DNA from: Phyllobacterium endophyticum
GTDB taxonomy: Bacteria; Pseudomonadota; Alphaproteobacteria; Rhizobiales; Rhizobiaceae
NCBI RefSeq assembly: GCF_003010935.1
Contig: NZ_PGGN01000001.1
Location: 62,001-126,000, forward strand
Direction: 5' to 3'
DNA length: 64,000 nucleotides
Shown piece by piece: positions 18,919-35,734 of this stretch. The position numbers were made by a program, and so were the translations under genes. How positions within the stretch are numbered: position 1 is the stretch's first letter; each line of letters opens with the position of its first letter. The notes under the pieces are model-generated. The model was not told where the DNA came from and searched no databases. It saw only the letters and a program-made list of their open reading frames with translations.

Positions 18919-19008
18919 GGAGAGGTGGCTGAGTGGTTGAAAGCACCGCACTCGAAATGCGGCATGGGGGCAACTCCATCGGGGGTTCAAATCCCTCCCT
19001 CTCCGCCA
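18919..19008 (+). tRNA. tRNA-Ser (anticodon CGA)
   Basis: The cloverleaf can be drawn directly: acceptor GGAGAGG with CCTCTCC, a D-arm TGGCTGAGTGG, an anticodon stem CCGCA/TGCGG with loop CTCGAAA giving anticodon CGA, a long class II variable arm (typical of serine tRNAs), the T-arm GGGGGTTCAAATCCCTC, discriminator G and an encoded CCA at 19006-19008. Its last bases are the left attachment site of the island to the right, and the gene remains intact after integration. Confidence 0.97.
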
Positions 19009-19010
19009 TC
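18995..19010 (+). repeat. attL: 16-bp direct repeat at the tRNA-Ser 3' end
   Basis: The 16-mer CTCCCTCTCCGCCATC spans the end of the T-arm, the 3' acceptor strand, CCA and two bases beyond. It is identical to 35719-35734. The tRNA is therefore restored on the left side by the element or host copy, as usual for tRNA integration. Confidence 0.92.
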
Positions 19011-19342
19011 TATTATATTTAAACATTTGATTTACCTAAGGAAATTGTCGTGGGTGGCGCTTATCCTGCATCCATTCCTGCATCCCGTCGAGCCGTCTCG
19101 AGTTGGGGAGAACGATATCAAACTAGTTTAACAGCAAGTACATACCCTTCCAATTGGGTGAGCTTCGGCCAACCCCACCCACCCGGCACCCCCGCTATAC
19201 AGACACTACAACCCATACCGAGCATACTAATCAGCGCAGACGTCGGCAAAAAATTTTGCAAAAAAATTCTGACTTTCCCGGCATTAACAATCTCCAAATG
19301 ATGTATTCGCGACGGCGCAAGAATTAAGAGCCGACGTCGATC
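19011..19342. other. Non-coding left end of the island
   Basis: No convincing gene is seen in these 332 bp. They hold the tandem TCCTGCATCC repeats (19064-19085) that match a similar pair at the other end of the island, and otherwise AT-rich sequence up to the end of the HNH-like gene. It is probably the recombination arm of the attachment site. Confidence 0.6.
19064..19085 (+). repeat. Candidate integrase arm sites, left end
   Basis: TCCTGCATCC occurs twice with a 12-bp period (19064-19073, 19076-19085), 54 bp inside the left attachment site. A pair of the same length, period and orientation, TCCTGCACC, lies near the right attachment site (35578-35599). Tyrosine integrases bind such arm-type repeats flanking the core, so these are plausible integrase or excision-factor sites. 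Confidence 0.55.
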
Positions 19343-20308
19343 CTATTCGCGCAATAAAGCGACCAACCTCCTGAATTCGGTATCCTTACCATTGCTTTTC
19401 CAACGGTTGACGAACCGACACACGATTTGCAGGTTGTCGAACTCATAGTGTCCATCGCTATCAATTCTGTCGAGTGAACACAGCAACTCCTTGTCGTCCT
19501 CATATCCATGATGTTGAAGCTGAAGTCCTGTTATGGCACAAAGTCCTTCTTGTGCATCGAGGAGTGCAGACAAATACGGCTCCAACTCCCTGTCAGGAAT
19601 GCGGAGCTCTTTGTTCTTCACTGTCTTCAGAACTTCCTGTCCATTCGATGTGGCAACAATGCCTTTGGCCATCATTGCCATGTAAGCAATCGAATTTTGG
19701 CGAGCGTTAAATGTGATGGCAGGGTTTTTCTTCTTTCGCTCAGCATTGGCTTTCCACTCCTGAAGGGAATGCCACGGTGATAGATCATCGCCATTTATCA
19801 GAGCGAGCGCATATTCAGCATTAGCTGGTCTGAGCTGCTGCAGCGTACCCTCCGTGAACATAAATTCTTTGGCACGCGAGTGGAGCCCCGTCCAATCAAG
19901 CTTGTTGCCAGCCCTGTTTACGTGTGCCCAAGGATCACAGGGTTTATGGCATATAATGACGTTTCGCCCGACACCAAAAGTTTCCTTCAGCGGTTCAAAC
20001 GAGGGCGCGTCCTGGCGAGAAATCGTCCACCACAGTTGGTTTTTTTCTCGGTGTATCCATACGTCTCCAGAGCTTTCGACAATCGTTGTCATCAAGTTGA
20101 ACCATCGCGAAGCGACTGGACGTGTTGGCGTGATGCCAGCAGCTGTCTTATCATGCTTCATCCTGTTTTGAATGTAGCTCTCGCGATCACCGGCCTCCCA
20201 AAAGCCTTGCACAGATATATCGTTCATTGTGGCGATGGTATTCCGAGCTAAACAATCGGGCCAAGCATAATTCTCGCGACCAAAATTGGCTATGTAGACC
20301 TTCAACAA
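19343..20308 (-). CDS. HNH-like endonuclease domain protein, last gene of the type I restriction operon
   Basis: This 321-aa protein has an unrecognised N-terminal two thirds and a C-terminal HNH-like domain from about residue 250: LCAITGLQL, then SLDRIDSDGHYEFDNLQIVC and NRWKSN, the layout of small HNH nucleases in which an Asp-Arg-Ile-Asp motif precedes the conserved Asn. The N-terminal part has a basic, aromatic composition without a known motif. The start is one of two adjacent TTG codons (20303-20308); GGAGG lies about 6 nt before, inside hsdS, and the gene overlaps hsdS by 7 nt. It is therefore translated with the restriction genes. It may be a nuclease effector or a DNA-recognition subunit; the exact role is unknown. 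Confidence 0.75.
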   Translation of the reverse strand: MLKVYIANFGRENYAWPDCLARNTIATMNDISVQGFWEAGDRESYIQNRMKHDKTAAGITPTRPVASRWFNLMTTIVESSGDVWIHREKNQLWWTISRQDAPSFEPLKETFGVGRNVIICHKPCDPWAHVNRAGNKLDWTGLHSRAKEFMFTEGTLQQLRPANAEYALALINGDDLSPWHSLQEWKANAERKKKNPAITFNARQNSIAYMAMMAKGIVATSNGQEVLKTVKNKELRIPDRELEPYLSALLDAQEGLCAITGLQLQHHGYEDDKELLCSLDRIDSDGHYEFDNLQIVCRFVNRWKSNGKDTEFRRLVALLRE

Positions 20309-21651
20309 TCGCCTCCTGACGCTTGGCGCCGTCGCGACTTCGGTTTGGCGTTGCGCTGGGACTTTATACGCTCCAGCAATGCGTTTGCCGGTTCATCCGC
20401 GGGGTCTTGCGGCACGAGTTCCCCCCGGAAAGCACTGGCTAGTACAGCTTGGTCGAGATGGTCAATCAGCCCACGCGCACCGGTGGTCTCAGAGGCAAAT
20501 CGATCGATCCATGCAAAAGCTCTCTCGATACATTTTACGGTTTCGGCCTGTTCGTCCTTTGAAAAGCTCGGAATTGGGAGATCGAGAAACTTCGACTGCG
20601 TCAGATTGAGACCGCTATCATTAATCCCTGTCTTCATTTCCTCCAGGGCGTCGAGACATTGCGGGGTGTTCAACATATAAGTAATGAACGTTGGGTCTGC
20701 AGTTTTGGGGTTAACTCGAAGGCGATACGCCTTATCGCACAACATTAATCGCGAATGAGCCTCGTTCACCATGCATGCAACCGCCACTCTGCTTCGCGGA
20801 CCGGCCCGCGTTATCAGTACGTCTCCAGCATTGAGGGTGATTGCCGGGCGGGGATTGAGGTGGGGGGGAAGTTTTTTGTTCGCACTGGCAACGAAGTTGA
20901 TCGGTTGGATCGCTGTAGTCTTGATTACAGCCCATTCGTTTGATTTGGCCGGTTCACTCTCGCATTTGGGGCTCCATCCTTGATCAAGTTTAACGACGAG
21001 TTCGGCTATCCGGATCGTAACGCCGCCGTTTCTTTTGTCAGAAGTAAAATGTCCCTCGTAGGCCGCAGCGAGAACGGCCTGCTTGTACTTTTCGATCAAA
21101 CGAGGGATATGGTCGAGGTGATTGCGGGCACGTTTGGATTTCGAGGAAAGGCGATCTATCTTCGATACAATACGTCGCTGTTCGGGTAGCGGCGGCAATG
21201 AAAATGGGAAGGACCGAATTGCTTGTTGGTTCAACGATGCTTGATTGACAGCATGCTGAGCGCGCATAGAAAACACCTCTTCGGCACGCAGATATCGGCA
21301 CTGTGCCTCGAAAAATTCCACGTCTACATCAGATGCAAGCGTAAACCTAAGAAGGTTTATTCCATGATACAAATCTCCTAGCCGATCCCTGTATATGGCC
21401 GTCTTACCGATATGCTTACCACTGTTTATGTGGCTAAAGAGTATGTCTCCGTCACAAAGTCTGTACTCTTGAGGCACACCCTCTCCATAACCAACTTTGC
21501 TTGTATTAATCTGCCCCGTAGCGATTGTCTCGATACGCGTGAGCGGAACGCCCAGCCCGTCCTTGTTCTGCGTGACGTTGTATCCGTTACGGATCGTAAG
21601 AATTACATCACCGAAAATCGTATCTTCCCAAGACTTTGGTTTTATCATCAT
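20302..21651 (-). CDS. hsdS: Type I restriction enzyme specificity subunit HsdS
   Basis: HsdS (449 aa) sets the DNA target of the type I complex. Two target-recognition domains are visible, about residues 10-170 and 215-390, each followed by a helical spacer: SLPPLPEQRRIVSKIDRLSSK after the first and SFSKDEQAETVKCIERAFAWID after the second. It overlaps hsdM by 4 nt (ATGA) at its start and the HNH-like gene by 7 nt at its end. The recognition sequence cannot be read off. Bipartite structure and length are normal, so it looks functional. Confidence 0.95.
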   Translation of the reverse strand: MMIKPKSWEDTIFGDVILTIRNGYNVTQNKDGLGVPLTRIETIATGQINTSKVGYGEGVPQEYRLCDGDILFSHINSGKHIGKTAIYRDRLGDLYHGINLLRFTLASDVDVEFFEAQCRYLRAEEVFSMRAQHAVNQASLNQQAIRSFPFSLPPLPEQRRIVSKIDRLSSKSKRARNHLDHIPRLIEKYKQAVLAAAYEGHFTSDKRNGGVTIRIAELVVKLDQGWSPKCESEPAKSNEWAVIKTTAIQPINFVASANKKLPPHLNPRPAITLNAGDVLITRAGPRSRVAVACMVNEAHSRLMLCDKAYRLRVNPKTADPTFITYMLNTPQCLDALEEMKTGINDSGLNLTQSKFLDLPIPSFSKDEQAETVKCIERAFAWIDRFASETTGARGLIDHLDQAVLASAFRGELVPQDPADEPANALLERIKSQRNAKPKSRRRQASGGDC

Positions 21652-23108
21652 TCTGCCGCTTCCGGGATTGTTATAGTATCCGGCTCCAGCTCTTCTGAAA
21701 GCGCCTCGATTTCCTCTAACGCGGCTTTCAGGTGGCCAATGATAGCGGCGGCAATGTCTTCGGGCTCGGTTAACGCCTCCTCTGCCTCGGCCTCAGTGTC
21801 GCGCAGCCATGCGATGTCGAGATTGTCATTGCGAGCGGTGATGACTTCGCGACTGAACCGTCGCCACCGGCCTTCCTCGCTATACTCACTCCTTTCCGCA
21901 CCCCCGTTCGGATCGGAGCCATAAGCGGCCTCGAACTCGGTGAAGTCAGCGACTGTAAGAGGGCGGGTTTTGCCAAAGGCGGGCATGTTGGCTCGCATAT
22001 CGTAAACCCAGACAGCGCTGGTGTTCGCTTTGTCTGTGGTGCCACGTCGGAAAAACAGGACATTGGTTTTAACACCCTGCGCGTAGAAGATGCCGGTCGG
22101 CAATCGGAGGATAGTGTGCAGGTTGCAGAGGTCCATCAACCATGTGCGGAGCCTTCGGCCGGTATTGTCTTCGAACAGCACATTGTCGGGGACAACAACG
22201 GCAGCACGCCCACCGGGCTTCAAGGCGCGGACGATGTGCTCGACGAAAGCTAGCTGCTTGTTCGATGTGTCCGCCGTCACCGAGAAGTCGGAGCGGGTCG
22301 GACGACCACCGCCCTTCTTGGTGCCGAACGGGGGATTGGTGAGAATAAGGTCGGCTTTTGTCAGTGTCTCGCCGTCAGGAGACAACGTGTCGATATTATC
22401 CACCCCCCCTTCAATGCCGTGGAGCAAAAGGTTCATCATACAGAGCCGATGGGTATCTGGGACAAGCTCCGCTCCTACAAATGCATTGTGTCGTTGAAAG
22501 AATGCCTGCGCTTCCGGCAGTTTGTACAGGTCGTCTGAATGATCCTTGATGTATCGGTCAGCAGCTACGAGAAAACCCGCGGTTCCCGCAGCGGGGTCTT
22601 GCACAACCTCCCCCGGCTGCGGCTGCATTAGCCGCACGATGCTGTCGATCAGCGGACGTGGAGTGAAGTACTGCCCCGCACCGGATTTCTTATCAGAAGC
22701 GTTCTTTTCCAACAGGCCCTCATAGAGATTGCCGAGGCCTTCCTCGCGGGCCGAAAACCAATCAAGCTGGTCAATATTCGAAGTCAATGCCTTCAAATTC
22801 GTTGGCTTGCGTAGCCGGGTCTGTGCATCGGTAAAGATGGCCCGGACAAGAACATCCTTGACTTCAGGCTTGCCAAGATCAAGCAGCATGCGCTTGTAAT
22901 ATTCGAGTTGTTCAAGACCTTCGCGTTTGGCAAGCGTCCCCCAGCGATAGTTGTCCGGCAAGCGGTTCTCGCGCCCGGTCTCCTCCAGCATTTTCAGGAA
23001 GAGAAGATAGGTTAGTTCCGTGACGTACTCGTTGTAGGTGACGCCGTCATCGCGCAGAACGTTGCAAAGGCCCCAGAGCTTGGCTACGATATCATTGGTG
23101 GTCGTCAC
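21648..23108 (-). CDS. hsdM: Type I restriction-modification DNA methyltransferase subunit HsdM
   Basis: HsdM (486 aa) is the N6-adenine methyltransferase of the complex. An HsdM N-terminal helical domain covers residues 1-130 (KLWGLCNVLRDDGVTYNEYVTE with LLFLKMLEE), followed by the catalytic domain with the SAM motif VQDPAAGTAGFLVAADRYI and the catalytic NPPF in LILTNPPFGTKKGG. The start is a GTG at 23108 overlapping the stop of the caspase-like gene (GTGA). The gene overlaps hsdS by 4 nt. The unusual point is that hsdM is not adjacent to hsdR. Confidence 0.96.
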   Translation of the reverse strand: MTTTNDIVAKLWGLCNVLRDDGVTYNEYVTELTYLLFLKMLEETGRENRLPDNYRWGTLAKREGLEQLEYYKRMLLDLGKPEVKDVLVRAIFTDAQTRLRKPTNLKALTSNIDQLDWFSAREEGLGNLYEGLLEKNASDKKSGAGQYFTPRPLIDSIVRLMQPQPGEVVQDPAAGTAGFLVAADRYIKDHSDDLYKLPEAQAFFQRHNAFVGAELVPDTHRLCMMNLLLHGIEGGVDNIDTLSPDGETLTKADLILTNPPFGTKKGGGRPTRSDFSVTADTSNKQLAFVEHIVRALKPGGRAAVVVPDNVLFEDNTGRRLRTWLMDLCNLHTILRLPTGIFYAQGVKTNVLFFRRGTTDKANTSAVWVYDMRANMPAFGKTRPLTVADFTEFEAAYGSDPNGGAERSEYSEEGRWRRFSREVITARNDNLDIAWLRDTEAEAEEALTEPEDIAAAIIGHLKAALEEIEALSEELEPDTITIPEAAE

Positions 23109-23746
23109 TTTGCATTCTCCACAAGATTTCTCACGCTTCCATCGGCGTCACGTTTACAAACGCTAAGTCCCAGTTCTTCGCATGCACCGCTCATAAGTTG
23201 CATGATTTTCTTGGTCGCTTTTTCGATCTGGTTCGGCGGATTTGCCAACTTATTGTTTAGCAGAGTGTAAAAAAATTGCTGGTCCAAGGCTGCCGAATAT
23301 ATCCAGTCGACTTCGGTTGAGTAACCAGACACCCAAGTCAACCCTTCGCATATCTCCAAAGTATCAGTTAAGAATTTTTCTGTTCCGATATGACAGACGC
23401 CAAAATGTATTCCTCTTATTTTATTGGGCTTTAGATATTTAGCCATAAAGCTGGGCAAGAGCTTTTGCGTTATAGATTTTCCATTGTGAAACTCTATTCG
23501 ATACGGCTTTCTATCGCCGTGTGAGGCCACATAAATATAATCAATTCTTTCATCGGCAGACACGCGTTCAAGACACTCGCCGAATGCTTCGGGAGATCCT
23601 ACTGTTTCATAATGATATGTGTGCGGATGGTTTTCGTGAAACATTTCGCAGGCCATCGTGTAGAGAGGTGCGATTGACACGTTCATGTAATTATACCAAC
23701 GAGTTTCTAATATAGCGATGCCGCTGTGTTTGGGTCTATTTTTCAT
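23105..23746 (-). CDS. Caspase-like cysteine protease candidate embedded in the restriction operon
   Basis: This 213-aa protein lies between hsdR and hsdM with 4-nt ATGA/GTGA overlaps on both sides. No annotated family is certain, but the arrangement fits a caspase/CHAT-type fold: a strand-His-Gly motif IDYIYVASHGD (His 76 from ATG 23746), then IRGIHFGVCHIGTEKFL with Cys 118 after a hydrophobic strand, then GLTWVSGYSTEVDWIYSAALDQQFF. The last motif resembles DUF6642-type proteins, which combine a HG strand, a GSC-like strand and GY..VDW...A.D. If catalytic, H76 and C118 form the dyad. It may be a death effector triggered when the restriction complex is challenged; that is inference. ATG 23746 is chosen because it overlaps the hsdR stop. 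Confidence 0.65.
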   Translation of the reverse strand: MKNRPKHSGIAILETRWYNYMNVSIAPLYTMACEMFHENHPHTYHYETVGSPEAFGECLERVSADERIDYIYVASHGDRKPYRIEFHNGKSITQKLLPSFMAKYLKPNKIRGIHFGVCHIGTEKFLTDTLEICEGLTWVSGYSTEVDWIYSAALDQQFFYTLLNNKLANPPNQIEKATKKIMQLMSGACEELGLSVCKRDADGSVRNLVENAK

Positions 23747-26700
23747 GCCGCACGCCACATTTCCTCATTTATCCCACCAAGAATGTTTTCAAGCTCTCCA
23801 TCGAAGACCTTGTTAAGCCGGTTGAACCCTCCATCAGTGATAAAGGGTTCTTTGTCTATGGCCTCGCGATCCACAATGACTTCTTTTTCGATCTGTTCGC
23901 CAATACGCTTAAGCCAACGCTTTTGTGGTTCAGTCCATTTACGACTAGCCATGATCGTTCGCATTGCAGATCGCACGCGATCTTCATAGGAAATCAGGGG
24001 GTCGCCGATTGCGGCCTGACGAACAAATCCTATAATGGATGCTGCAATTTCCTCATTCTTGGCATCAGCCCATGCCCTGCGTAGATTGGCTTCCGAATAG
24101 CCTTTGCGGTCAAGTGCAAGGCGAAGCTCTTTCAGATCAGCGCGGGTCAAATCGCGAGGACGCTGTACGACAAGCTTCAAAGCGGCAATGGTATTCACGT
24201 TATCGCGCACGAAGACAGAGAAGCCTTCGAGAAAATCTTCAGGTTTAACAGCATCGCCATAGCCACGTGTCACTGCCACTACCTCATCGGCGTGATGCGA
24301 GATCGGCACATAACGCGGGTTGTCGCCGTCCGACTGCCAGTCAAGGATCGGCGCGACGGCTGACCGTGCGGAGAGCCATGCGGCAACATCGGCGCCGGGT
24401 CCGTCGAGTATACGTTTCAGCATAGCATCCGGTGTCTCACCCGCGACGGCCTCAAACCGCTCTCGGGCTTCGTCTGGCAGCTTCTTCAGACGGCGCCGCA
24501 GCTTAACTGCAAGCTGTTCACGGATCACATCTCGTTGGACATCATTGGTCGCCTTGATCAGCTCGCGCACAAGCTGCTCAAAGCTAATCGACGGATTGAC
24601 GACCACTGGCTTCATATCAGTCAGGTTTTGAAGGTGCGGATAAAGGTCCACCGCGTCGAAGATGTGGAAAACTTCTTTACCAATCTCATCGCACTTCCGT
24701 GTCGCTCTCCCGATCATCTGCTCGTAGAGGATACGACTATTCACCCGGCGCAGGAAAACCAGGTTAGCAATCTTCGGCACGTCAATGCCAGTGGTGAGCA
24801 AATCAACTGTCACTACGATCTTCGGGGTGGCGTCATTGCGATACGACCGGATGAGGTTCTGCACTTTGTCCACACTACCCGTAATTTTTTTTACGGCAGT
24901 GTCGTCAATCTCGCCATACGCGTCGGCAAATGCCGTCTTGATGGCATCGACCACTATGTCGGCGTGGGCGTCGGTCGCAGCGAAGATCAGGGTCTTGCCG
25001 GGAAGCGCTGGATCAATGTGCTTGGCCAGTACCTCGGCGACAACCCGGTTGAACTCCGGTGTAATAACTTGCTTGTTGAACTGATCGACTTCAAATCGAA
25101 TTTCGTCGGGCGCATGAGCAAGGTCAACCTCCCCTGTCTGGGTGTTTAACAGATCAAGTTGCTCGTTTTTCTCGAACTTTATGCCCGCTCTCGCCAAGGC
25201 TGTCTCGATGCGGATCGGTGGCTCATGATCGATCAGGAAGCCGTCGATCACAGCCTCGCGATAGGAGTATTTGAAGATCGGCTCGCCAAAAATGTCGGTC
25301 GTGTGCAGAGCGGGCGTGGCCGTAAGTCCGATTTTCACCGCGTCGAAGTATTCCAAAACGCGCCGGTATTTGGATATGTAATCTTCCTGCCCCCGGAAGC
25401 TCAGCTCCGCATCGGACATTTCCCGGTCGAGGAGATAACCGCGATGGCATTCGTCGATGACCATGAGGTCATACTGATCGATGGGTGGGGTTTCGGATGT
25501 ATCGGTTGCGTAGAGCACACGCTTAACCAACCCTTGTATGGTGCAGATATGCACCTTGGTTTCAAGGTCGGGAGCTACGTCTTGCAGCCCCTTCAGCCCA
25601 AAAATCTCCGCGAATGTCTTACCTGACACGACCTTGGTAGTTGAGAACTCACCTTCCGTCTGATACCCGAGGGCGCTGCGGTCTACGACAAAACAGATGC
25701 GGCGGAACCGCTTCGCGGAAAGGAGACGGTAAAGCAGCGCAATTGCCAGCTTGGTTTTGCCGGTGCCAGTGGCCATCGCTACCAGCATCGACCTTTGCTC
25801 TGCAGACAGCGCATTCTCGACGGCACGGATAGCTCCCTCCTGATAAGGCCTCAGCGGAAAGTCGAAATCGAAAGGCTTATCTTTCAACGCAGCGGTGGCC
25901 GCGTCCTGATCAACCTCAAGTTGGCCAGCCAGCCCGTCCGGCGTCGGCCAGTCTCCAAGTACGCGGCGATGATTGGCGCTGCGGCGAGTATCGCGGAACC
26001 AGATGCCGCTTTCGGTCTTGATCTGCTTTAGGTAGGATCGACCGTTGGCGGCGAAGACAAACGGAACACGATGCTCGTCCCACGGCCCGCCTGCCGCGTC
26101 GAAGTCGGCGCTGTCCTTGATGCCGAATGAATAACGTTCGGCTTGATCAATAGCCGCCGAGACATTCTTCCGCCGCCGCTTCGCCTCTACGACGCCAACG
26201 AGCATTGTGCCGACGAATAAAGCATAATCAGCCGGTCCACTAGTCGTAGGCCATTCGGCAATCGCCATGTTGCGACCCTTTGCCGGACGGATACCCTTGC
26301 CAAACCGTAGCTCCTTTGTATCTGCTTCCCAGTCGCGATCCCGAAGCTGCTGATCGATCAACGCACGAGTTTCGCTTTCGTCAAGGTCGATCTTGGCCGC
26401 TGCCACCTCACCGAGTTCAACAAACTCTGCGGCGACCTTCGGCGCGGCGTTGGCGGCGTTCTGCAGCTCAAAAAGTTTCGCCTCGACTGCGGCCTTTTCT
26501 GCGTCAATGCTTTGAGCAAGCTCCTCCCACATCGTTCGATCTTGCGCTTCACGCATGAAGCGTTGCTCTGACGTCTCGTGGGCACGTGCGAGTTCCATCT
26601 TCTCAACTTCGACACGTGCAGTAGCGTCCATACTCGCAGCAACTTGTTGGCGCAGGGCCACTATTTCCTGCCGCAAGGTTGCGGCAGCATCGATAGGCTC

Positions 26701-27111
26701 TGGGGGCGGAACGAAGGGGCCAGGATTGAAGTTCGGCTGTCGAGCATACGTACGGTGAAACCAAACACCAAGAGAACGGGCAAACTTGAGGGCCGTCAAT
26801 GCGTCGGAATGTGTGCCCTTGATTTCATGCGCTGCTACATTGCCGACCTTTCGAATGGCATGGAACAGGTCGGCAGCTTCTTTAGGCAAAATACGTTCAT
26901 AGGAAAGGCGCCGAAGTATGGCGTCGAAGCTCTCGATTTCGTATACGGCGTGATGCGCGGAAATTAGCTTGGCGAGGAGTTCCGCGAATTGCCTCAGCTT
27001 GAAAATGGAAGTCGCTGGGTCGTCGCGGAAATACTTTTCCCCAAGAGCACCCAAGTCTTCCAACCTACTGTCATGCTGCCGAAGAAATCCAAAGTTCAGC
27101 GATGCAACCAT
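23743..27111 (-). CDS. hsdR: Type I restriction enzyme translocase/endonuclease subunit HsdR
   Basis: HsdR (1122 aa, EcoEI-like length) is the motor and nuclease subunit. An N-terminal DUF4145-type helical domain (about 1-115) is followed by a coiled coil (about 145-225), a PD-(D/E)xK nuclease region (GPADYALFV to GVVEAKRRRK, about 290-315), and a superfamily 2 helicase with Walker A MATGTGKTKLA near 450, DECHRG and LTATP motifs, and VDLLTTGIDVPKIANLVFLRRVNSRILYEQMIGRATRK. The C-terminus matches the EcoEI R-type helical end. A GGGGGT site precedes the ATG at 27111. It overlaps the caspase-like gene by 4 nt. All catalytic motifs look intact. Confidence 0.96.
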   Translation of the reverse strand: MVASLNFGFLRQHDSRLEDLGALGEKYFRDDPATSIFKLRQFAELLAKLISAHHAVYEIESFDAILRRLSYERILPKEAADLFHAIRKVGNVAAHEIKGTHSDALTALKFARSLGVWFHRTYARQPNFNPGPFVPPPEPIDAAATLRQEIVALRQQVAASMDATARVEVEKMELARAHETSEQRFMREAQDRTMWEELAQSIDAEKAAVEAKLFELQNAANAAPKVAAEFVELGEVAAAKIDLDESETRALIDQQLRDRDWEADTKELRFGKGIRPAKGRNMAIAEWPTTSGPADYALFVGTMLVGVVEAKRRRKNVSAAIDQAERYSFGIKDSADFDAAGGPWDEHRVPFVFAANGRSYLKQIKTESGIWFRDTRRSANHRRVLGDWPTPDGLAGQLEVDQDAATAALKDKPFDFDFPLRPYQEGAIRAVENALSAEQRSMLVAMATGTGKTKLAIALLYRLLSAKRFRRICFVVDRSALGYQTEGEFSTTKVVSGKTFAEIFGLKGLQDVAPDLETKVHICTIQGLVKRVLYATDTSETPPIDQYDLMVIDECHRGYLLDREMSDAELSFRGQEDYISKYRRVLEYFDAVKIGLTATPALHTTDIFGEPIFKYSYREAVIDGFLIDHEPPIRIETALARAGIKFEKNEQLDLLNTQTGEVDLAHAPDEIRFEVDQFNKQVITPEFNRVVAEVLAKHIDPALPGKTLIFAATDAHADIVVDAIKTAFADAYGEIDDTAVKKITGSVDKVQNLIRSYRNDATPKIVVTVDLLTTGIDVPKIANLVFLRRVNSRILYEQMIGRATRKCDEIGKEVFHIFDAVDLYPHLQNLTDMKPVVVNPSISFEQLVRELIKATNDVQRDVIREQLAVKLRRRLKKLPDEARERFEAVAGETPDAMLKRILDGPGADVAAWLSARSAVAPILDWQSDGDNPRYVPISHHADEVVAVTRGYGDAVKPEDFLEGFSVFVRDNVNTIAALKLVVQRPRDLTRADLKELRLALDRKGYSEANLRRAWADAKNEEIAASIIGFVRQAAIGDPLISYEDRVRSAMRTIMASRKWTEPQKRWLKRIGEQIEKEVIVDREAIDKEPFITDGGFNRLNKVFDGELENILGGINEEMWRAA

Positions 27112-27229
27112 ATCTACCCCCGGCTGCAGTGTTGCACGAAATGTTGACGATTTGTCTATCTCTTTAATACTGATTTCTCAGGCGACAGCCATGGGAAATT
27201 GGCGACGTCAATACAAAGCCGTTCAGTTA

Positions 27230-27811
27230 TCAGTCTTCAAGATCGCGAACCGCACCTTTAACATTCAGCAGTGCATGCTTTCCCAAGAATTTAATAAGCA
27301 CAACTTCAATTTTGTTACATAAATCTGCGTCAGCGACAGCAAGAAATGCCCCACGGACCACAAGCGGATGTTTAAACCAAAATCTGGTTTGGTGATCTTT
27401 AACACGCATTCGAACACTCGCTACAGATTTACCTACGTACACTGGTCGATCTGTTATGTCATAGAATACATATATTCCCGCTTTTTCAGGTACAGTTTCC
27501 AAGTCTGAAGGGGTGAAATCAGCCCATTCGTAACCTGCAATCGGCGACGCCTGTCTCTCGTCCTCCTCGATCTGCGGGGGGACGTTTTCCTGCAATGCAG
27601 CTGCAAGTTTCAACCTTGTCTCTTCCCTCGGAGAAACGGTATTACCCTTAACGATATTCCATACGCCGGTGTATGTGATGCCTGTCTTTTCGGCGAGGGC
27701 GTTGATCGACAGACCCTTGCGTTGCATTTCCAGGAGAAGCCATTCGCCGAAAGTTTGTCGTTGCGATAGATCGTTGAGAGCCTCGAAGCCGTCGGAATTT
27801 TCGTTGATCAT
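27230..27811 (-). CDS. HTH (Xre-type) fused to a GIY-YIG nuclease domain
   Basis: This 193-aa protein has an Xre-like helix-turn-helix at residues 20-75 (FGEWLLLEMQRKGLSINALAEKTGI, then WNIVKGNTVSPREETRLKLAAAL) and a GIY-YIG domain from about residue 110 (KAGIYVFYDITDRPVYVGKSVASVRMRV, then a conserved basic and aromatic stretch and an acidic NKIEVVLIKFL helix that would carry the catalytic Glu). The fusion could be a DNA-binding nuclease or a regulator of the adjacent restriction operon, whose hsdR starts 118 bp downstream. An AAAGGGG site precedes the ATG. I know no function for this exact fusion. Confidence 0.75.
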   Translation of the reverse strand: MINENSDGFEALNDLSQRQTFGEWLLLEMQRKGLSINALAEKTGITYTGVWNIVKGNTVSPREETRLKLAAALQENVPPQIEEDERQASPIAGYEWADFTPSDLETVPEKAGIYVFYDITDRPVYVGKSVASVRMRVKDHQTRFWFKHPLVVRGAFLAVADADLCNKIEVVLIKFLGKHALLNVKGAVRDLED

Positions 27812-27856
27812 AGCTTTGCCCCTTTGGGTCTGGTTTGTCGAATTTCGGGATAGTAA

Positions 27857-28366
27857 TTATAAGAATTTTGCAGCTTGCAGAATTTGCGACACACCATCTC
27901 GTTCATCTTGATATTTTATTACCGAACGAACATTAGGCATTCCCAATGCCATGAGTGAAATGTAGCCTTCACCAATCTGTAATAAGTGTAGGGAATGGTC
28001 CGGATTTTCGTATTGGACTTCATCAATTTTATTTCCATCATAATCTCTGAAGCACAGAATAACGGGAATTCCTGCTGTATCAGCAAGCTGGAGTTCAATC
28101 CCCATCCCAGTTGATGGAAAACTCGCTTCTGCGATCACAAGATCGGCCTCCTCGACCATCCTCCGATCCCACAGGTAACAATAGCGCGCCCTTTCCGAAA
28201 ACGGTTTGTCCGCAAGCTGGGGGTCACTATTGACCAACGCATATTTTACGTCGTCCACGCTATCCAACGACTTCAAATTTTGTGCAATCAGGTGAATGAA
28301 TTGGGTGTATTCGGTAAAATGATTTCGTGGAACGTGCGTGAGCCCGCAGGCGACGTATATCTTCAT
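27857..28366 (-). CDS. Nucleoside 2-deoxyribosyltransferase-like protein
   Basis: This 169-aa protein has the nucleoside-deoxyribosyltransferase-like Rossmannoid layout: MKIYVACGLTHVP at the start, WDRRMVEEADLVIAEASFPSTGMGIELQLAD in the middle (the family's Asp and Glu region with PSTG and GxE), and a short strand PVILCFRDYDG. Related folds include NAD- or nucleotide-cleaving effectors in retrons and other phage-defence systems. It starts 7 nt after the YaaC-like gene with a GAGGT site, so they are probably expressed together. Enzymatic activity is inferred from fold only; the earlier in-frame start at 28393 is less likely. Confidence 0.7.
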   Translation of the reverse strand: MKIYVACGLTHVPRNHFTEYTQFIHLIAQNLKSLDSVDDVKYALVNSDPQLADKPFSERARYCYLWDRRMVEEADLVIAEASFPSTGMGIELQLADTAGIPVILCFRDYDGNKIDEVQYENPDHSLHLLQIGEGYISLMALGMPNVRSVIKYQDERDGVSQILQAAKFL

Positions 28367-28373
28367 TTGTACC

Positions 28374-29411
28374 TCATGTTGGCGCACGGACATTTGGCGA
28401 CTGGAACTGATAGCCCGTTAGTTCGGATGCAATTTCGTCGATAAATTGGTTTGGCGACATCTGGATAAACTCGCTGAGCAACCAGTTATATTTTCCTGAA
28501 AGATGAGCCGACAGTTCCAAAGGTGCATATCTACAAAGTTCACTCAGGCGGTGCATACCCGCCAGTACCAGCGTGGGAACTTGACGTTCAATCCGAGTGG
28601 GACCAGCGGTATTGACTTTTATGTACCACAGTGTTTGCGCACCGTTTATATAGTTCAGGTAACCTTGAAGTTGACGGCGAAGGGAAGCCAAATTCTCTAA
28701 GTCGACAGCCGAAGGGCGGCTTGCGCTGCTGACTGCCACATCAGCGGATGACCGCAAAAAACTGTCGCTTCCCGGATCTGGGACAAAATTCGGAGCCAGT
28801 CGTTTAATTGCTTGGCGGCTAGTATGGTCCTTGGACATCTTAAATCTCAGATATGCCCTTCGCGTAAGGCGGTCGAAGGCATATACGGGCTCCACTATCG
28901 GCATAAACATCTGCGCTTGACCCGGATGAGACAGGCAATAAGTGCGATGGATGAACGGCAGATTGAACAAAATCTCTTTGAGCGAATGTGTCCTACTCTC
29001 TTCAGGTTCGTGATAATATTGCGCCAAGGAAAACAGGACACCGCGATTTGCAATTCGAATACCGGTATTTGATATATTTACGCGGGTGCTCGCACCGGGA
29101 ATGGCGTGTCTGCCGACACCATGATGCTCGTGAAAATTAATATTCTTGGAGGCAAGAAGAGCTTTCACTGCATTCATATAACTATAGTATAGAAGTAGTG
29201 GGGATGATTGAAGTGGCAGTCCTATCGATGCCTTGTAAAACTCTTCAGCCTGACCCCAATAAAAGAGCCCTTTATCCAATTTGTTGCGTTTAAGCCAAAG
29301 TGCAACGAATGTCCAAGGGCTGTTTGTCAGTACCGTCCTTGAGCCAAAAATTTGGTTGATCGAGGCTTTATGAAGAGATAATTCACGTCCTTTATATTTG
29401 ACGATACTCAT
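28374..29411 (-). CDS. YaaC-like protein
   Basis: This 345-aa protein resembles the YaaC family: WTFVALWLKRNKLDKGLFYWGQAEEFYKAS, then SPLLLYYSYMNAVKALLASKN, and a C-terminal segment MHRLSELCRYAPLELSAHLSG with WLLSEFIQMSPNQFIDEIASELTGYQF. YaaC has no established biochemical role. The pattern of two well-conserved helical ends and a variable middle is seen here too. It lies directly upstream of the deoxyribosyltransferase-like gene, in the island, which suggests a two-gene defence module. GAGAG precedes the ATG. The family call is from motif resemblance only. Confidence 0.6.
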   Translation of the reverse strand: MSIVKYKGRELSLHKASINQIFGSRTVLTNSPWTFVALWLKRNKLDKGLFYWGQAEEFYKASIGLPLQSSPLLLYYSYMNAVKALLASKNINFHEHHGVGRHAIPGASTRVNISNTGIRIANRGVLFSLAQYYHEPEESRTHSLKEILFNLPFIHRTYCLSHPGQAQMFMPIVEPVYAFDRLTRRAYLRFKMSKDHTSRQAIKRLAPNFVPDPGSDSFLRSSADVAVSSASRPSAVDLENLASLRRQLQGYLNYINGAQTLWYIKVNTAGPTRIERQVPTLVLAGMHRLSELCRYAPLELSAHLSGKYNWLLSEFIQMSPNQFIDEIASELTGYQFQSPNVRAPT

Positions 29412-29470
29412 GATTTCTCTCGTAACTCTGGTCGTACCTCAAGGTCAGGATCAATATCTAAGCAACTCGT

Positions 29471-30703: not shown

Positions 30704-30980
30704 TTCCTTACCCCACGACCCCAGAATGAACGTTCGCATGAGCGCGAAAAACAATCAATAATCTGAATAGACGATGCCAATCGTCATTTCGTTCAGCGCT
30801 GAGCCGTATAACACATCGGTTGATAAGAGTTTTCATGTGCGGCAAACGTCAAATAATTCATGTATTACAATGATTTAATTCTCAACGCACAATACCGTAT
30901 TTTATTCAATTCTTACGGAAATGCGATTGGTACGACGGGAGCTCCTGCAATATAATCTGGGTCGGAAAATACGATGAAGA

Positions 30981-31295: not shown

Positions 31296-31412
31296 CCTTG
31301 AATGTCGTCGAACTAAGCGGTTGTCAGTGGTCAATTTGTCCGCCAGCCGGACGGATAGATAGATATCTGAAGCCTGCCAAAGATCTTCGTGTTTACGCGA
31401 AACCGTTTTGGT

Positions 31413-31452: not shown

Positions 31453-31499
31453 CAGGTTGAGGACCAAGCATACTGGTCAGTTCGCCAGTGGAACATGGG

Positions 31500-33620
31500 T
31501 CAACTCTGGCTTTTTTTGGGTACGGCATAGCATTTTTTCATTTCACGTTTGTGATTGGCACGTTCAACAACTGTGATGGCGCCGGTTTTGAGCCAGTGTC
31601 CCAAAACGCCTTGTACTTGTCGCAGCGCGGCTTTCTGAGGACCCGTTTTATTCACCCGCGTCATCCCTTGACCGACGTCGATGCCAAGCTCATTGGCTAC
31701 GATATATCCCCCCCAATCCGGAGATTGCGGATTGGCGCGATAGGAACTTGCCTCAAACTTTTCTTGCACGCTGCGCAATACTTGATCGCTAGCGAAAATC
31801 GCCATATCGGGTGGAACCCATCTTGTAACAATTCCGACGTCATCCGAATTCTCCAATGTCACTGTCTTCATCTCGTACCAATCTTGCTGGTCAGAGGAAG
31901 CAGACATGTTTTGCTTCTCTGAAGAAGCCAAAAAATGAGACCGATGATTTTCAGCGCCAAGTCGAGCCGCATCATTTTCCGTCATGCGATTGAGCACGCG
32001 TACCTCGCGGCACGAAGCAGCGAAGGCGCTACCACCCCGCGCACTTTCGGCGGTCAAATTTTCACCGTTTTGCTTCCGGGCGTGATGAACCAACTCGATA
32101 GCGCAATTGCCCCGTTCAGCTATATCTGACCATGTGCGTATAGCAATTTCGATAGCTGTGTTATCGTTTTCCGGTAAGCGATGAGATGCGACGAAAGGAT
32201 CGATGATCAGGACATCGATTTTATTTCTTTGTATACCTTCAACTAGCTGCCTCACCACATGCGGCGACACAATAATTTTGTCACCTGCTTTTTCAGCAAT
32301 GGTGATCGGCGTATCGCGCCCCGAATTGACAAAAAGTCTGCCAGCAACGTCAGCGTCGTTCAGTTTGAAATATTTGCGTATAGCCACAAATCGACGATTA
32401 AGCTCGTCAATAGGATCTTCCAGATTGATATACCAAACCCGCAGCGGTGGCTGCGCCACGGATACGTCAAGAATTTTCTTGGCGCTAACCATGGCTAGCG
32501 CCTCGGTTTGAACAAGGATGCTCTTCCCGATACCGCCCGCTGAAACAGTTGCCGACACAAACTTTCGGATCAAATGTTTACCGTAGAGCCAATCACGTTT
32601 CGTTACGTGTTTTTCCTCGATCCATGAAAACGGTAGCGGAACGATTACTGGAGAGGTTTTCCTAGCCTCATCCGCCAGCGCCCGGGCAACTCCTGTCCTC
32701 GGCATTTTGCCACCTATCGGCGCGGTGCCGTTGGTGACCGACGTTGGTGCCGACCGGGGTTCATTACAACCAGCACGAAATCCGCTCTCAAAAGTGGCAG
32801 CGGCTTCAACATCGTCCATTTTTCGCTGAGATGCTGCCTCAAGTAAGCAATTTGCGTCTGTTCGAGATATTTCTCCACCAGCAACAAGTTGACCAATAGC
32901 GTGCGCAGCGACATTGAGGCTGTTATTCGCAGTCCCGGCCGGTGCCGTGGACACTCGTTCAAATTCTCTGTCTAAAGCCGCTTGACCGTATGCCGTCGTG
33001 GCACCTGTGCCGAAAGTATTTATTGGTAGAGCAGGTCGATAGCTCGTACCAGTCGCTTTTGTCGAATATGCCCAATGGGGAAGGGGTGTTGCGATCTGGG
33101 AAAGAGCGCCAAAATTTTGGGCATGGGCAAAGTGATAGTCTGATCCGCTGATCGTCGGCCTCGAAGGTGGCAAGATGATCATACCGCCTTCGGCCCGAAG
33201 ATCGATGCCGGAGCCAATCTTTCCTGCGCTGTTTTTGAGCCCACTCTCCCAGAAACCAAAATAGTAGTGGGATCCCCCAGAAGGTGTTTTAACTTCTACA
33301 GCATCTTTCGGGATGGAAAATCCCAAAGTATGCAACGTACTATGACCGTCTATCCCATTCTTCTGGTCAACATCCAGCACTACAAAGCCGCTTCGTGGGC
33401 CTGTTGGAGCACCAATCATCGCCGTTGGCCATCGTCGCCACCATTTCTCGATCTGATCGGGATCTTTTGTTGCCTCAGTCGACCAAGAGACAAGCGGGAC
33501 CTTGTTGCCGCCCACAGGAAAAACAGGAATTCCCGCTGCAGCATATTGTTTCGCAGCCGAAATCATTTCAGCGGTAAGAGCTGTGTTACGCTCCTCAGGT
33601 GACAATGAAGGGGCGCTCAT
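31500..33620 (-). CDS. Bifunctional primase/polymerase-helicase replication protein
   Basis: This 706-aa protein combines an N-terminal prim-pol (AEP) domain, about residues 20-190, with FPVGGNKVPLVSW, the metal-binding acidic motif FVVLDVDQKNG, and HYYFGF, and a C-terminal RepA/AAA_25-type ATPase with Walker A TVSAGGIGKSIL near residue 360 and Walker B-like IDVLIIDPFVASH. Such fusions replicate phage satellites and integrative elements. ATG 33620 overlaps the stop of the AlpA-like gene by 4 nt (ATGA). The C-terminal end is basic and ends in NHKREMKKCYAVPKKS. Autonomous replication after excision is plausible but unproven. Confidence 0.85.
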   Translation of the reverse strand: MSAPSLSPEERNTALTAEMISAAKQYAAAGIPVFPVGGNKVPLVSWSTEATKDPDQIEKWWRRWPTAMIGAPTGPRSGFVVLDVDQKNGIDGHSTLHTLGFSIPKDAVEVKTPSGGSHYYFGFWESGLKNSAGKIGSGIDLRAEGGMIILPPSRPTISGSDYHFAHAQNFGALSQIATPLPHWAYSTKATGTSYRPALPINTFGTGATTAYGQAALDREFERVSTAPAGTANNSLNVAAHAIGQLVAGGEISRTDANCLLEAASQRKMDDVEAAATFESGFRAGCNEPRSAPTSVTNGTAPIGGKMPRTGVARALADEARKTSPVIVPLPFSWIEEKHVTKRDWLYGKHLIRKFVSATVSAGGIGKSILVQTEALAMVSAKKILDVSVAQPPLRVWYINLEDPIDELNRRFVAIRKYFKLNDADVAGRLFVNSGRDTPITIAEKAGDKIIVSPHVVRQLVEGIQRNKIDVLIIDPFVASHRLPENDNTAIEIAIRTWSDIAERGNCAIELVHHARKQNGENLTAESARGGSAFAASCREVRVLNRMTENDAARLGAENHRSHFLASSEKQNMSASSDQQDWYEMKTVTLENSDDVGIVTRWVPPDMAIFASDQVLRSVQEKFEASSYRANPQSPDWGGYIVANELGIDVGQGMTRVNKTGPQKAALRQVQGVLGHWLKTGAITVVERANHKREMKKCYAVPKKSQS

Positions 33621-33844
33621 TGCTCGTCGCTCCCCGTATTCCATTTTGTCTGAGGGCGAGTGCGGAGAAACTCAATAAGTTCTTCGCCCATTACAAATGT
33701 GCGCTTGCCAATCTTACGACGGGTGAGATGACCTTCATTGAAAAGTTTGTGCAGTGAGCCCGGCGAAAGTCCGCTGACTTGGCAGGCTTCCGAGATGCTG
33801 TACGCAAGCTTGACGAGAGATTTTCCGTTGTTCGATGGATCCAT
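33617..33844 (-). CDS. AlpA-like helix-turn-helix regulator/excisionase
   Basis: This 75-aa protein has a MerR-type small winged helix: YSISEACQVSGLSPGSLHKLFNEGHLTRRKIGKRTFVMGEELIEFL, as in AlpA and excisionase-like proteins (HTH_17). Such proteins either activate integrase genes or serve as the excision factor. It overlaps the primase-helicase gene (ATGA) and lies 89 bp after an unknown gene coupled to the integrase, so it is part of the mobility module. GGCGGTT precedes the ATG. Confidence 0.82.
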   Translation of the reverse strand: MDPSNNGKSLVKLAYSISEACQVSGLSPGSLHKLFNEGHLTRRKIGKRTFVMGEELIEFLRTRPQTKWNTGSDEQ

Positions 33845-33933
33845 AATAACCGCCTATTGTTGAAGACGGTTACCCATTATTCACATGGCGCTCGGCATTT
33901 CAGCACCAACAATTCCATATTAAATGACCCGGA

Positions 33934-34380
33934 TCATCCGGTTAATCGATCAATATTGCGGTAGACCTTTCGATAGAAGGTGTCGGCTCTTTTTGCTTCG
34001 CTTTCACTGACATTTAGCCGCTGTGCAACCGTGACAACTACATTCTTTGCGGGCGGCTTCATCTCTCTCAACTCATTGCAGGCGATGCCGATCTCCCACC
34101 AACGCGATGGTCGGTAATGGACTGGCCGTCCCCGCCCGTGCTGATGTTGGACGGGGTCGAGGAAGTCAGCTGCCAAACGTTGGACCAGAGCGGGCGCTTT
34201 TCCAGTCCGAAGGTATGATACAATTGCGTCACGAGCCGCATCTTTGTTGCCCGACAGCATTACGTCCAGAATAAAAAAAACGTCCACGTAGTCCTTCGCA
34301 ACAGAAGTGTCTTTCGCCATGGCAACAATGCTGGAAGCGATTTCTAACGCTTCAGCGTCTTCCTCAAGGCGCTTCGTCAT
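33934..34380 (-). CDS. Unknown protein coupled to the integrase gene
   Basis: This 148-aa protein is not recognised. It begins MTKRLEEDAEALEIASSIVAMAKD, is helical and charged, and contains the segment GRGRPVHYRPSRWWEIGIACNELREMKPPAKN followed by VAQRLNVSESEAKRADTFYRKVYRNI, which could be a helix-turn-helix. Its ATG overlaps the integrase stop by 4 nt (ATGA), so it is translated with the integrase. Position suggests an accessory factor for recombination or regulation. Confidence 0.65.
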   Translation of the reverse strand: MTKRLEEDAEALEIASSIVAMAKDTSVAKDYVDVFFILDVMLSGNKDAARDAIVSYLRTGKAPALVQRLAADFLDPVQHQHGRGRPVHYRPSRWWEIGIACNELREMKPPAKNVVVTVAQRLNVSESEAKRADTFYRKVYRNIDRLTG

Positions 34381-35576
34381 GCCTTCGCCCTCAACGCGAC
34401 AACGTTTTTCGGAACATCCTGACCAGAGCAGTATGCTGACCAGCATTCTAATAAAGCCCTTCGTTTTTCGATGGCCGACGACCGCCGGTAAGCTCTTTCC
34501 GTTGCGTCCCCCACACGGTGTGCCAATGCAGTTTCAATCAAATCTCGCGGGAAGTGGGTTTCATCGCCCGCCCAATCGCGGAAAGTGCTGCGAAACCCAT
34601 GCGGCGTGATTTCATCTTGCTTCATGCGCCTCAGAAGCATCTCGATGGAAGTTGCAGACAATGGACGATTGGGCCGCTGCCCCGGAAATATGTAGTCAGA
34701 TGTGCGAACGGTCTTGAGCCTGTTCAGGATCATGAGGGCTGCTGGTGTCAGTGGCACACTATGGTTCTTGCCTGCCTTCATTCGATTGCCCGGTATGTTC
34801 CAAAGTCTTTCGTCAAAATCGATTTCGTGCCACGTGGCGTTTAAAACCTCACCGGAACGTGCTGCTGACAAAATGAGGAACTCCAATGCCAGAGCAGCTA
34901 CGGCTTCACGTTCACGTAAGTTTTTCATGAAAGCTGGCAAAATCTTATAGGGGAGTGCTGCGTGGTGACCGCGCTGCAACCTGACCCGAGTTGGCAAAAT
35001 TAACTTTAAATGGCCCTGCCATAGTGCTGGGTTCATACCGTCCCGCCATCCTTTGGCCTTGGCAAAATCCAGAACGCGCTCAATCCTTCCACGTATTCGC
35101 GATGCGGTTTCCGACTTGTTTTGCCAAATTGGCAAGAGAATTCTGAGGATGTCGTCCGTCGTGATCTTATCGACGGCCTTCTTTGTTATGGAACGACAGT
35201 ACGCCTCCCCGAGGGTCATTTCCCATTGAGCAGAGTGTTTTTCATTTCGCCACGCCGGTCTGTTAACTTTTAGGAACAGGTCAACACATTCAGAGAAACA
35301 TGGCACCGTTTCCTTTTGACGTAGTGAGAATGGGTCAATTCCGTTAACCACACTCGCTTTCGCCTCTGCCGCCACGAGGCGAGCTTTAGCGAGAGACACT
35401 GCAGGGTAGCCACCGAGCCCCATAGCTCGGCGCCGACCTGCAGTCTTCCACATATAGAGCCAAGCTTTTGTCCGGGATGCCGACACTTCTAGGTATAACC
35501 CGCCCCCGTCCCCATATCGCCCCGGTTCCAGCTTGCCTTTAACTTTGAGATCAGAAAGCTTGTGTATTGCGGCCAT
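34377..35576 (-). CDS. P4-type tyrosine recombinase/integrase
   Basis: This 399-aa integrase has the DUF4102-type N-terminal arm-binding domain (LKVKGKLEPGRYGDGGGLYLEVSASRTKAWLY), a central SAM-like domain, and the catalytic domain with Arg in LSAARSGEVLNATWHEIDFDE, the HxxR motif in PHGFRSTFRDWAG, a third box in ALAHRVGDATERAYRR, whose Tyr is the likely nucleophile. It would integrate the element at the tRNA-Ser 3' end. ATG 35576 has AAAGGG about 9 nt upstream; a GTG at 35597 lies inside the tandem repeat. It is 142 bp from the right attachment site. All key residues seem present. Confidence 0.94.
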   Translation of the reverse strand: MAAIHKLSDLKVKGKLEPGRYGDGGGLYLEVSASRTKAWLYMWKTAGRRRAMGLGGYPAVSLAKARLVAAEAKASVVNGIDPFSLRQKETVPCFSECVDLFLKVNRPAWRNEKHSAQWEMTLGEAYCRSITKKAVDKITTDDILRILLPIWQNKSETASRIRGRIERVLDFAKAKGWRDGMNPALWQGHLKLILPTRVRLQRGHHAALPYKILPAFMKNLREREAVAALALEFLILSAARSGEVLNATWHEIDFDERLWNIPGNRMKAGKNHSVPLTPAALMILNRLKTVRTSDYIFPGQRPNRPLSATSIEMLLRRMKQDEITPHGFRSTFRDWAGDETHFPRDLIETALAHRVGDATERAYRRSSAIEKRRALLECWSAYCSGQDVPKNVVALRAKA

Positions 35577-35577
35577 T

Positions 35578-35599
35578 TCCTGCACCCTTTCCTGCACCT
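35578..35599 (+). repeat. Candidate integrase arm sites, right end
   Basis: TCCTGCACC occurs twice with a 12-bp period (from 35578 and 35590), just upstream of the integrase start and 120 bp inside the right attachment site. The pair matches the left-end pair at 19064-19085 in length, spacing and orientation. Overlap with the integrase ribosome site would also allow autoregulation. Confidence 0.55.
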
Positions 35600-35718: not shown

Positions 35719-35734
35719 CTCCCTCTCCGCCATC
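35719..35734 (+). repeat. attR: 16-bp copy of the tRNA-Ser 3' end
   Basis: This is an exact copy of 18995-19010. Only the last part of the tRNA is duplicated; the bases upstream (GAAGTT) do not continue the T-arm, so there is no second tRNA gene. Sequence to the right resumes with chromosomal genes. Confidence 0.92.

What the first reader, a model, noticed from the sequence alone, without database searches (positions are those of the whole stretch)
19343..27111. A type I restriction operon with a caspase-like protein and an HNH-like nuclease as fixed members
hsdR, a caspase-like gene, hsdM, hsdS and an HNH-domain gene overlap head to tail (ATGA, GTGA, ATGA, then 7 nt with a TTG start). Overlaps at every junction mean that the two extra genes are translated with the restriction enzyme and are not chance insertions. 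The caspase-like gene interrupts the hsdR-hsdM order. A plausible model is a fail-safe: the restriction complex detects foreign DNA and, if defeated, a protease or nuclease kills the cell. Seen: gene order and overlaps. Known: type I composition. Inferred: the effector model.
Basis: partly seen in the sequence, partly recalled or inferred. Interest (0 to 1): 0.87.

Follow-up and report, generated by a model that had tools for sequence, protein, structure and literature searches.

The report
Caspase-like gene inside a restriction operon
A bacterial DNA-restriction operon on a mobile island carries an embedded gene for a caspase-fold protein and a downstream gene for a DNA-cutting enzyme; both look like exchangeable defence cassettes rather than fixed parts, and relatives of the first turn up in other restriction operons.

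Summary
Observation confirmed: hsdR, a 213-aa caspase-like gene, hsdM, hsdS and an HNH-type gene overlap head to tail. The model has a caspase/CHAT fold (best PDB match SAVED-CHAT, E 1.5e-7); His76/Cys118 are invariant in 16 of 16 homologues. 'Fixed members' is wrong: of 21 other hsdR loci read in the order, none shows the caspase-like gene and one the HNH gene. The caspase-like gene is a low-GC cassette (43%; hsdR 55%) at the hsdR/hsdM junction that is empty in close relatives, on a ~16.7-kb island at tRNA-Ser. Its family recurs in RM operons in seven of 16 distinct loci, two type I and five BPTD_3080/Mod/UvrD, but in only one of seven hits of random genome samples. The HNH protein joins an endonuclease-VII-type domain to a perhaps YTH/EVE-like domain (weak). 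Best reading: exchangeable defence cargo, the protease probably an abortive effector (inferred). Embedding is known (PrrC, DarTG2, TgvAB); I found no caspase-type cargo in print in the searches made.

The parts
23743..27111 (-). hsdR, type I restriction subunit, 1122 aa, EcoEI-type C-terminus
   Evidence: NCBIfam PRK11448 1580 bits; EcoEI_R_C 2.4e-41
23105..23746 (-). caspase-fold (clan CD, CHAT/DUF6642-like) cysteine protease candidate, 213 aa; H76 and C118 conserved
   Evidence: GC 0.427
21648..23108 (-). hsdM, N6-adenine methyltransferase, GTG start
20302..21651 (-). hsdS, specificity subunit, 449 aa
19343..20305 (-). HNH/endonuclease-VII-type nuclease with a perhaps YTH/EVE-like N-terminal domain; TTG start most likely at 20305 (reader: 20308)
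27230..27811 (-). HTH + GIY-YIG-like protein upstream of hsdR (118-nt gap); possible regulator, not shown to belong
   Evidence: both matches below the Pfam cut-off
18919..19008 (+). tRNA-Ser(CGA), probable attachment site of the island
18995..19010 (+). probable attL: 16-bp direct repeat at the tRNA 3' end
35719..35734 (+). probable attR: second copy of the 16-bp repeat
34377..35597 (-). tyrosine integrase of the island
   Evidence: Phage_int_M, Arm-DNA-bind_3, Phage_integrase
31500..33644 (-). Prim-Pol/AAA_25 primase-like protein of the island

Best explanation
A type I RM operon on a tRNA-Ser integrative island carries two exchangeable defence cassettes. The first, between hsdR and hsdM, encodes a stand-alone caspase-fold cysteine protease that most likely acts as a suicide or shut-down effector during infection, possibly switched on when the RM complex is engaged or defeated. 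The second, after hsdS, encodes a two-domain nuclease (perhaps a modified-base reader, plus an HNH/endonuclease VII domain) that most likely cuts phage DNA whose modifications escape the type I enzyme. Shown: gene order, overlaps, predicted caspase fold and conserved pair, nuclease domain by profile, cassette nature, island borders, recurrence of the protease family in two kinds of RM operon.
For: Fold: model with pLDDT 87; SAVED-CHAT 1.5e-7, caspase-3 9.9e-6, C11 1.8e-5, Csx29 2.4e-5. H76 follows strand 70-74 and C118 follows strand 112-116, the usual clan CD places (recalled); invariant 16 of 16. Cassette: GC 0.427/GC3 0.444 against hsdR 0.548/0.598; the hsdR stop and the hsdM start abut in the five relatives compared, L077-L079, L081, L082. 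Slots: nothing between hsdR and hsdM in 18 of 21 relatives, another gene in two, one locus partial; a co-oriented gene directly after hsdS in 11 of 20, with NACHT, AAA and Abi_C among those scanned. Recurrence: casp in five gene runs with a type III-like Mod and in a second type I operon; the two type I-linked members are not sisters in the tree. The Mod-to-helicase slot holds other genes in three plasmid records read and none in a fourth. HNH: PHROG 3322/1035 at about 2e-12; the eight best fold matches of the model are all YTHDF2. Its homologues also lie in IMG/VR contigs.
Against: In random genome samples only one of seven casp hits outside the own genome sits in an RM operon, one more in a defence-like island, five in other surroundings. 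Casp was not found in the six of 148 order genomes, nor in the 37 plasmid records, that hold the Mod gene (against the casp searches). The tree does not exclude a single origin of type I linkage, and the window row is a long branch. The YTH likeness is weak (E 0.016 at best) and a profile comparison with ordinary EVE domains is negative; the HNH half was modelled with pLDDT under 50. No activity data.
Confidence: 0.6

Rival explanations
1. PrrC-like fail-safe: the protease is bound and silenced by the HsdRMS complex and released when a phage anti-restriction protein attacks it.
For: Embedded and overlapping in the operon; a protease domain alone, 213 aa, with no separate sensor domain, so a partner must supply the signal; recurrence with two RM kinds; PrrC/EcoprrI precedent (PMC2610378, passages).
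Against: PrrC is described as invariably linked to type Ic RM, whereas this family is mostly not RM-linked in random samples and was not seen at 21 other loci of the same hsdR family.
Confidence: 0.25
2. The protease regulates restriction, for instance by cutting HsdR to relieve self-attack, as ClpXP does for EcoKI.
For: Location directly between hsdR and hsdM; RM-linked in seven of 16 distinct loci; ClpXP precedent seen in a passage of PMC12255303.
Against: 18 of 21 related operons have nothing in that place; nine of the 16 casp loci have no RM operon around casp in the stretch read.
Confidence: 0.12
3. Passive passengers: unrelated defence genes landed in an expressed operon and work alone, without any link to restriction.
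For: Variable cargo at the same places; distinct base composition of casp; HNH homologues without RM genes in IMG/VR contigs; TgvAB inside a type I operon protects without HsdR restriction activity (PMC11411939, passages).
Against: The family lies in type I and type III-like RM operons more often than a crude expectation in the combined, partly pattern-based set.
Confidence: 0.3
4. The HNH gene is a selfish homing-type nuclease rather than a defence enzyme.
For: HNH/endonuclease VII families; scattered over plasmids, islands and IMG/VR contigs.
Against: A conserved Trp-rich N-terminal domain of about 190 residues and defence-like neighbours in several loci.
Confidence: 0.15

Closest known systems
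PrrC embedded in EcoprrI (type Ic RM)
   Same: Effector gene inside an hsd operon; possible activation when restriction is attacked.
   Different: The effector is a caspase-fold protein, not an anticodon nuclease; another RM subtype; not a constant companion of it.
DarTG2 embedded in type I RM (RptR island), PMC12255303 (passages)
   Same: Non-RM effector between hsd genes, at a site the authors call a potential recombination hotspot. That island ends with an M48-like metallopeptidase gene; the Thalassotalea casp locus has a YgjP-type one.
   Different: DarTG2 is a toxin-antitoxin pair and lies between hsdS and hsdR.
TgvAB embedded in V. cholerae type I RM, PMC11411939 (passages)
   Same: Type I RM plus a modification-dependent nuclease in one operon, complementary targets.
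   Different: A GmrSD-like protein pair; here a single protein with a perhaps YTH/EVE-like part and an HNH part, placed after hsdS.
EVE-HNH putative type IV restriction enzymes, PMC7641849 (passages)
   Same: Predicted reader domain plus HNH nuclease.
   Different: The N-terminal domain here has no Pfam EVE match; the likeness is by fold only and weak.
SAVED-CHAT and Csx29 (structures 8tl0, 8eey)
   Same: Caspase/CHAT fold in a prokaryotic immune locus.
   Different: No SAVED or other sensor domain (213 aa in all); partner is an RM system.
DUF6642 (PF20347)
   Same: Weak sequence match in two of 12 homologues, best E 5.7e-5.
   Different: The window protein itself does not match; family function unknown.

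Membership tests
Type I restriction-modification system | hsdR, hsdM and hsdS genes together, with their domains | tested here: met
Type I restriction-modification system | DNA methylation and restriction activity | not testable with these tools
   no methylome or assay
Caspase-fold (clan CD) cysteine peptidases | caspase-like alpha/beta fold | tested here: met
   149 PDB matches at E<=0.001; of the 50 listed most are CHAT, caspase, MALT1 or C11 entries; predicted model only
Caspase-fold (clan CD) cysteine peptidases | His then Cys at the ends of neighbouring strands, conserved | tested here: met
   H76 and C118, 16 of 16
Caspase-fold (clan CD) cysteine peptidases | peptidase activity | not testable with these tools
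   needs assay
Peptidase_C14 (PF00656) | profile match | tested here: not met
   no match in the own genome; none for the protein
CHAT (PF12770) | profile match | tested here: not met
   one of 12 members, E 0.23 only
DUF6642 (PF20347) | profile match | tested here: inconclusive
   two of 12 members, best 5.7e-5; window protein none
PrrC-type RM-guarded effector | effector gene embedded in hsd operon | tested here: met
   (that it is an effector is inferred)
PrrC-type RM-guarded effector | constant linkage to its RM type | tested here: not met
   0 of 21 related hsdR loci; orphans
PrrC-type RM-guarded effector | silencing by and binding to the RM complex | not testable with these tools
   needs bench work
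Type IV modification-dependent nuclease (EVE/YTH-HNH) | HNH or other nuclease domain | tested here: met
   E about 2e-12
Type IV modification-dependent nuclease (EVE/YTH-HNH) | modified-base reader domain of PUA/EVE/YTH fold | tested here: inconclusive
   YTHDF2, E 0.016-0.2, probability 0.51-0.89; no sequence-profile support
Type IV modification-dependent nuclease (EVE/YTH-HNH) | cuts modified, not unmodified DNA | not testable with these tools
   needs assay

The most novel reading that the evidence does not exclude
A stand-alone caspase-fold protease is a portable effector cassette shared between type I and type III-like restriction operons, and restriction complexes act as its sensor: a protease-based guard of restriction, a protein-cutting counterpart of PrrC.
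Probability: 0.25. Interest if true: 0.85.

Novelty: new variant of a known kind. Interest (0 to 1): 0.55.

Why it matters
Caspase-type proteases in prokaryotic immunity are known behind CRISPR, cyclic-nucleotide and gasdermin systems (recalled, apart from the SAVED-CHAT and Csx29 entries and a gasdermin paper listed). If one is really controlled by restriction enzymes, the oldest known phage defence would join the sensors that trigger proteolytic cell death, and the recurring slots in hsd and Mod operons become a practical place to look for unknown defence genes. Even without coupling, the locus puts in one operon the cutting of unmodified DNA, probably the cutting of modified DNA, and probably a suicide effector.

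Tried and rejected
Rejected: fixed membership of either gene. Rejected: overlap as proof of fixed membership, since the same -4 junctions occur with other cargo (L090). Rejected: plain Peptidase_C14 or CHAT by sequence.

Led nowhere: sequence relatives in the PDB (none; 87 and 88 only matches above E 0.1); casp in phage records (none) and in IMG/VR (none); the profile comparison of the HNH protein's N-terminal domain with ordinary EVE domains (probability 0.15, a casp control 0.17). For it 10 of the 14 EVE loci were used: L110, L115 and L117 were not tried in the script and L116 yielded no sequence. DUF6642 in papers (none). A complete empty attachment site was not found: the joined-flank query gave the left flank, ending within a few bases of the tRNA 3' end, in 18 of 18 congeners; part of the right flank lies on the same contig in three of them, but 5.6, 9.8 and 32 kb further on.

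Rows dropped or not read: L045 (same match as L044) was not read; of 25 plasmid records with the HNH homologue nine were opened; of 37 with Mod four. L096 (partial hsdR, no hsdM seen) is left out of the hsdS counts. The two weak casp hits L097 and L098 are outside the 16-row alignment; neither lies in an RM operon by eye, so RM linkage is seven of 18 if they are counted. The figure of 60 RM-like loci there is an assumed generous number, not a count.
Full report
1. What is there. On the minus strand the genes hsdR (27111-23743), casp (23746-23105), hsdM (23108-21648), hsdS (21651-20302) and the HNH gene (from 20305 or 20308 to 19343) follow head to tail. HsdR, HsdM and HsdS are ordinary by Pfam, NCBIfam and PADLOC.

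2. The caspase-like protein. It has no Pfam, PADLOC or PHROGs match, only a chance-like NCBIfam match at 0.017, and no PDB match by sequence. A model from 12 homologues has mean pLDDT 87.2 and pTM 0.86. Foldseek finds 149 PDB chains at E<=0.001; among the best are SAVED-CHAT (1.5e-7), caspase-3 (9.9e-6), a C11 protease (1.8e-5) and Csx29 (2.4e-5). In the library of predicted viral proteins 12 match at E<=0.001; the best is an uncharacterised Myoviridae protein (4.4e-10), and most of the rest are named caspases or clostripains, so phages may carry relatives of this fold. His76 and Cys118 follow strands 70-74 and 112-116 and are invariant in 16 of 16 homologues. Two of 12 members weakly match DUF6642 (best 5.7e-5), one CHAT at 0.23.

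3. The HNH protein. PHROGs place residues 205-321 in an endonuclease family and 236-316 in endonuclease VII, at 2-3e-12. The model is poor overall (pLDDT 61; residues 194-321 below 50), but the first ~190 residues are better and have the order strand-helix-strand-helices-four strands, the order that a passage of PMC7641849 gives for EVE domains. Its eight best fold matches are all YTHDF2, E 0.016-0.2, probability 0.51-0.89. Against this, no EVE or YTH match was found among nine family members (one matched NucS_N at 0.0067), and a profile comparison with ordinary EVE domains is negative. A modified-base reader fused to a nuclease, hence a type IV restriction enzyme, is my best reading, at somewhat better than even odds.

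4. Are they fixed members? No. HsdR homologues at E<=1e-100 occur in 22 of 397 genomes of the order, own included. I read the 21 others (20; G223). HsdM follows hsdR with nothing between (gaps up to 127 nt) in 18; another gene lies between in two (261 aa in L080; DUF429 in L090); one (L096) is partial. None shows casp. Of 20 with an hsdS, 11 have a co-oriented gene directly after it: HNH and then an Mrr-like gene in G223, and elsewhere NACHT, AAA, Abi_C, Mrr-like and unassigned proteins (the Mrr label is mine by eye; not every cargo gene was scanned). In a Paracoccus plasmid the order is hsdR-FRG-hsdM-NucS-hsdS-a protein with the same HNH C-terminus. The HNH family itself was found in 5 of 297 order genomes, own included: G223 in the type I operon, G037 (C-terminus only) divergent from another type I-like operon, G118 and G242 elsewhere. 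In the five relatives compared the hsdR stop and the hsdM start abut (L077-L079, L081, L082); in the window casp lies exactly there, with GC 0.427 and GC3 0.444 against 0.548 and 0.598 for hsdR. It is a cassette.

5. Does the protease family go with restriction? Homologues are rare: 4 of 297 order genomes, 3 of 385 class genomes and 3 of 398 phylum genomes (two of them weak), own included each time; two plasmid records; no phage record; 11 loci in a motif-pattern scan of the GTDB 220 species genomes. Distinct loci number 16, plus the two weak ones. Seven of the 16 lie in RM operons: the window; Thalassotalea (hsdM-hsdS-two unscanned genes-hsdR-YgjP-casp); and five same-strand runs that share a type III-like Mod, with BPTD_3080-type nuclease, GmrSD_N/REase-ARP and UvrD genes in varying completeness (L033, L034, L036, L038, L012/L043). 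Casp directly follows Mod in L036 and L038; in L033 and L034 other genes lie between; in L012/L043 the Mod frame looks broken and the contig ends behind casp. The BPTD_3080 name was tested on the L037 gene and extended by similarity. A crude chance expectation gives P of 3e-8 or less for seven of 16, but the scan used motifs taken partly from an RM-linked member. In the random genome samples alone, one of seven hits outside the own genome is in an RM operon (G190) and one in a defence-like island (G407: GmrSD gene next to it, BPTD_3080 gene about 6 kb off); for one of five, before the two weak hits, P is 0.04-0.11, which is not compelling. In the tree the two type I-linked members are not sisters, but a single origin is not excluded by well-supported branches and the window row is a long branch.

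6. The second slot. BPTD_3080-Mod operons without casp exist: in a Pseudomonas avellanae plasmid the nuclease, Mod and '3'-5' exonuclease' genes follow each other with nothing between; Rhizobium leguminosarum, Sphingomonas and Phenylobacterium plasmids have other small genes between Mod and the exonuclease/UvrD gene. Casp was not found in the six order genomes or the 37 plasmid records (which used the window protein alone as query) with this Mod. So casp is an occasional passenger in both kinds of RM operon.

7. The island. A 16-bp direct repeat links the tRNA-Ser 3' end (18995-19010) with 35719-35734, just outside a tyrosine integrase (34377-35597). GC is 0.45-0.56 in the 1-kb windows inside. 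The operon's DNA is missing from 19 other genomes of the genus, apart from one 46-base match. In 18 of 18 congeners similarity to the left flank ends within a few bases of the tRNA 3' end; an empty site was not found. Homologues of the HNH gene also sit in IMG/VR contigs.

8. Mechanism. The operon layers attack on unmodified DNA (HsdRMS), probably on modified DNA (reader-HNH), and a protease without a sensor domain of its own. Most likely the protease is a last-line effector; whether the RM complex controls it is open. Precedents, seen as passages: PrrC with EcoprrI (PMC2610378), DarTG2 in a type I operon (PMC12255303), TgvAB in a type I operon, protective without HsdR restriction (PMC11411939).

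9. Novelty. The listings of the full-text searches showed no paper that I recognised as describing a caspase-like gene embedded in an RM operon. I saw listings and passages of four papers only; preprints such as Payne et al. 2024 (seen only as a citation) are not held. I rate it a new variant of a known kind: embedded defence cargo, here with a caspase-type candidate effector.

Noticed in passing
window 18995-35734: A ~16.7-kb integrative island at tRNA-Ser with 16-bp repeats, tyrosine integrase, primase-like protein and defence genes.
   Followed up: yes
L018 (G037:C93:8000-26000): A genome of another family of the order has a different type I-like RM operon and an HNH homologue (C-terminus only) close to what look like the same rplU-rpmA-obgE-proB-proA genes (by translation): possibly a shared insertion hotspot. 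No tRNA was found in that stretch.
   Followed up: partly
window 27230-27811: HTH plus GIY-YIG-like protein directly upstream of hsdR; possible regulator (below cut-offs).
   Followed up: no
window 29471-30754: Trypsin-like peptidase with PAN domains inside the island, a second protease near the operon.
   Followed up: no
window 27857-29411: YaaC-like gene and a nucleoside deoxyribosyltransferase-like gene on the island, overlapping by 20 nt.
   Followed up: no
L097 7850-8497: A distant, weakly matching casp-like gene sits between rplL-like and rpoB-like genes (labels by eye), an odd place.
   Followed up: no
L013, L014: Casp homologues near ilv/leu/miaA-like genes (by eye) in two genomes of one family of the order, possibly a stable chromosomal gene.
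   Followed up: no
L046 3717-4727, L047 7968-8978: HNH-protein homologues in the middle of what look like phage tail genes (by eye), as a moron-like insert.
   Followed up: partly
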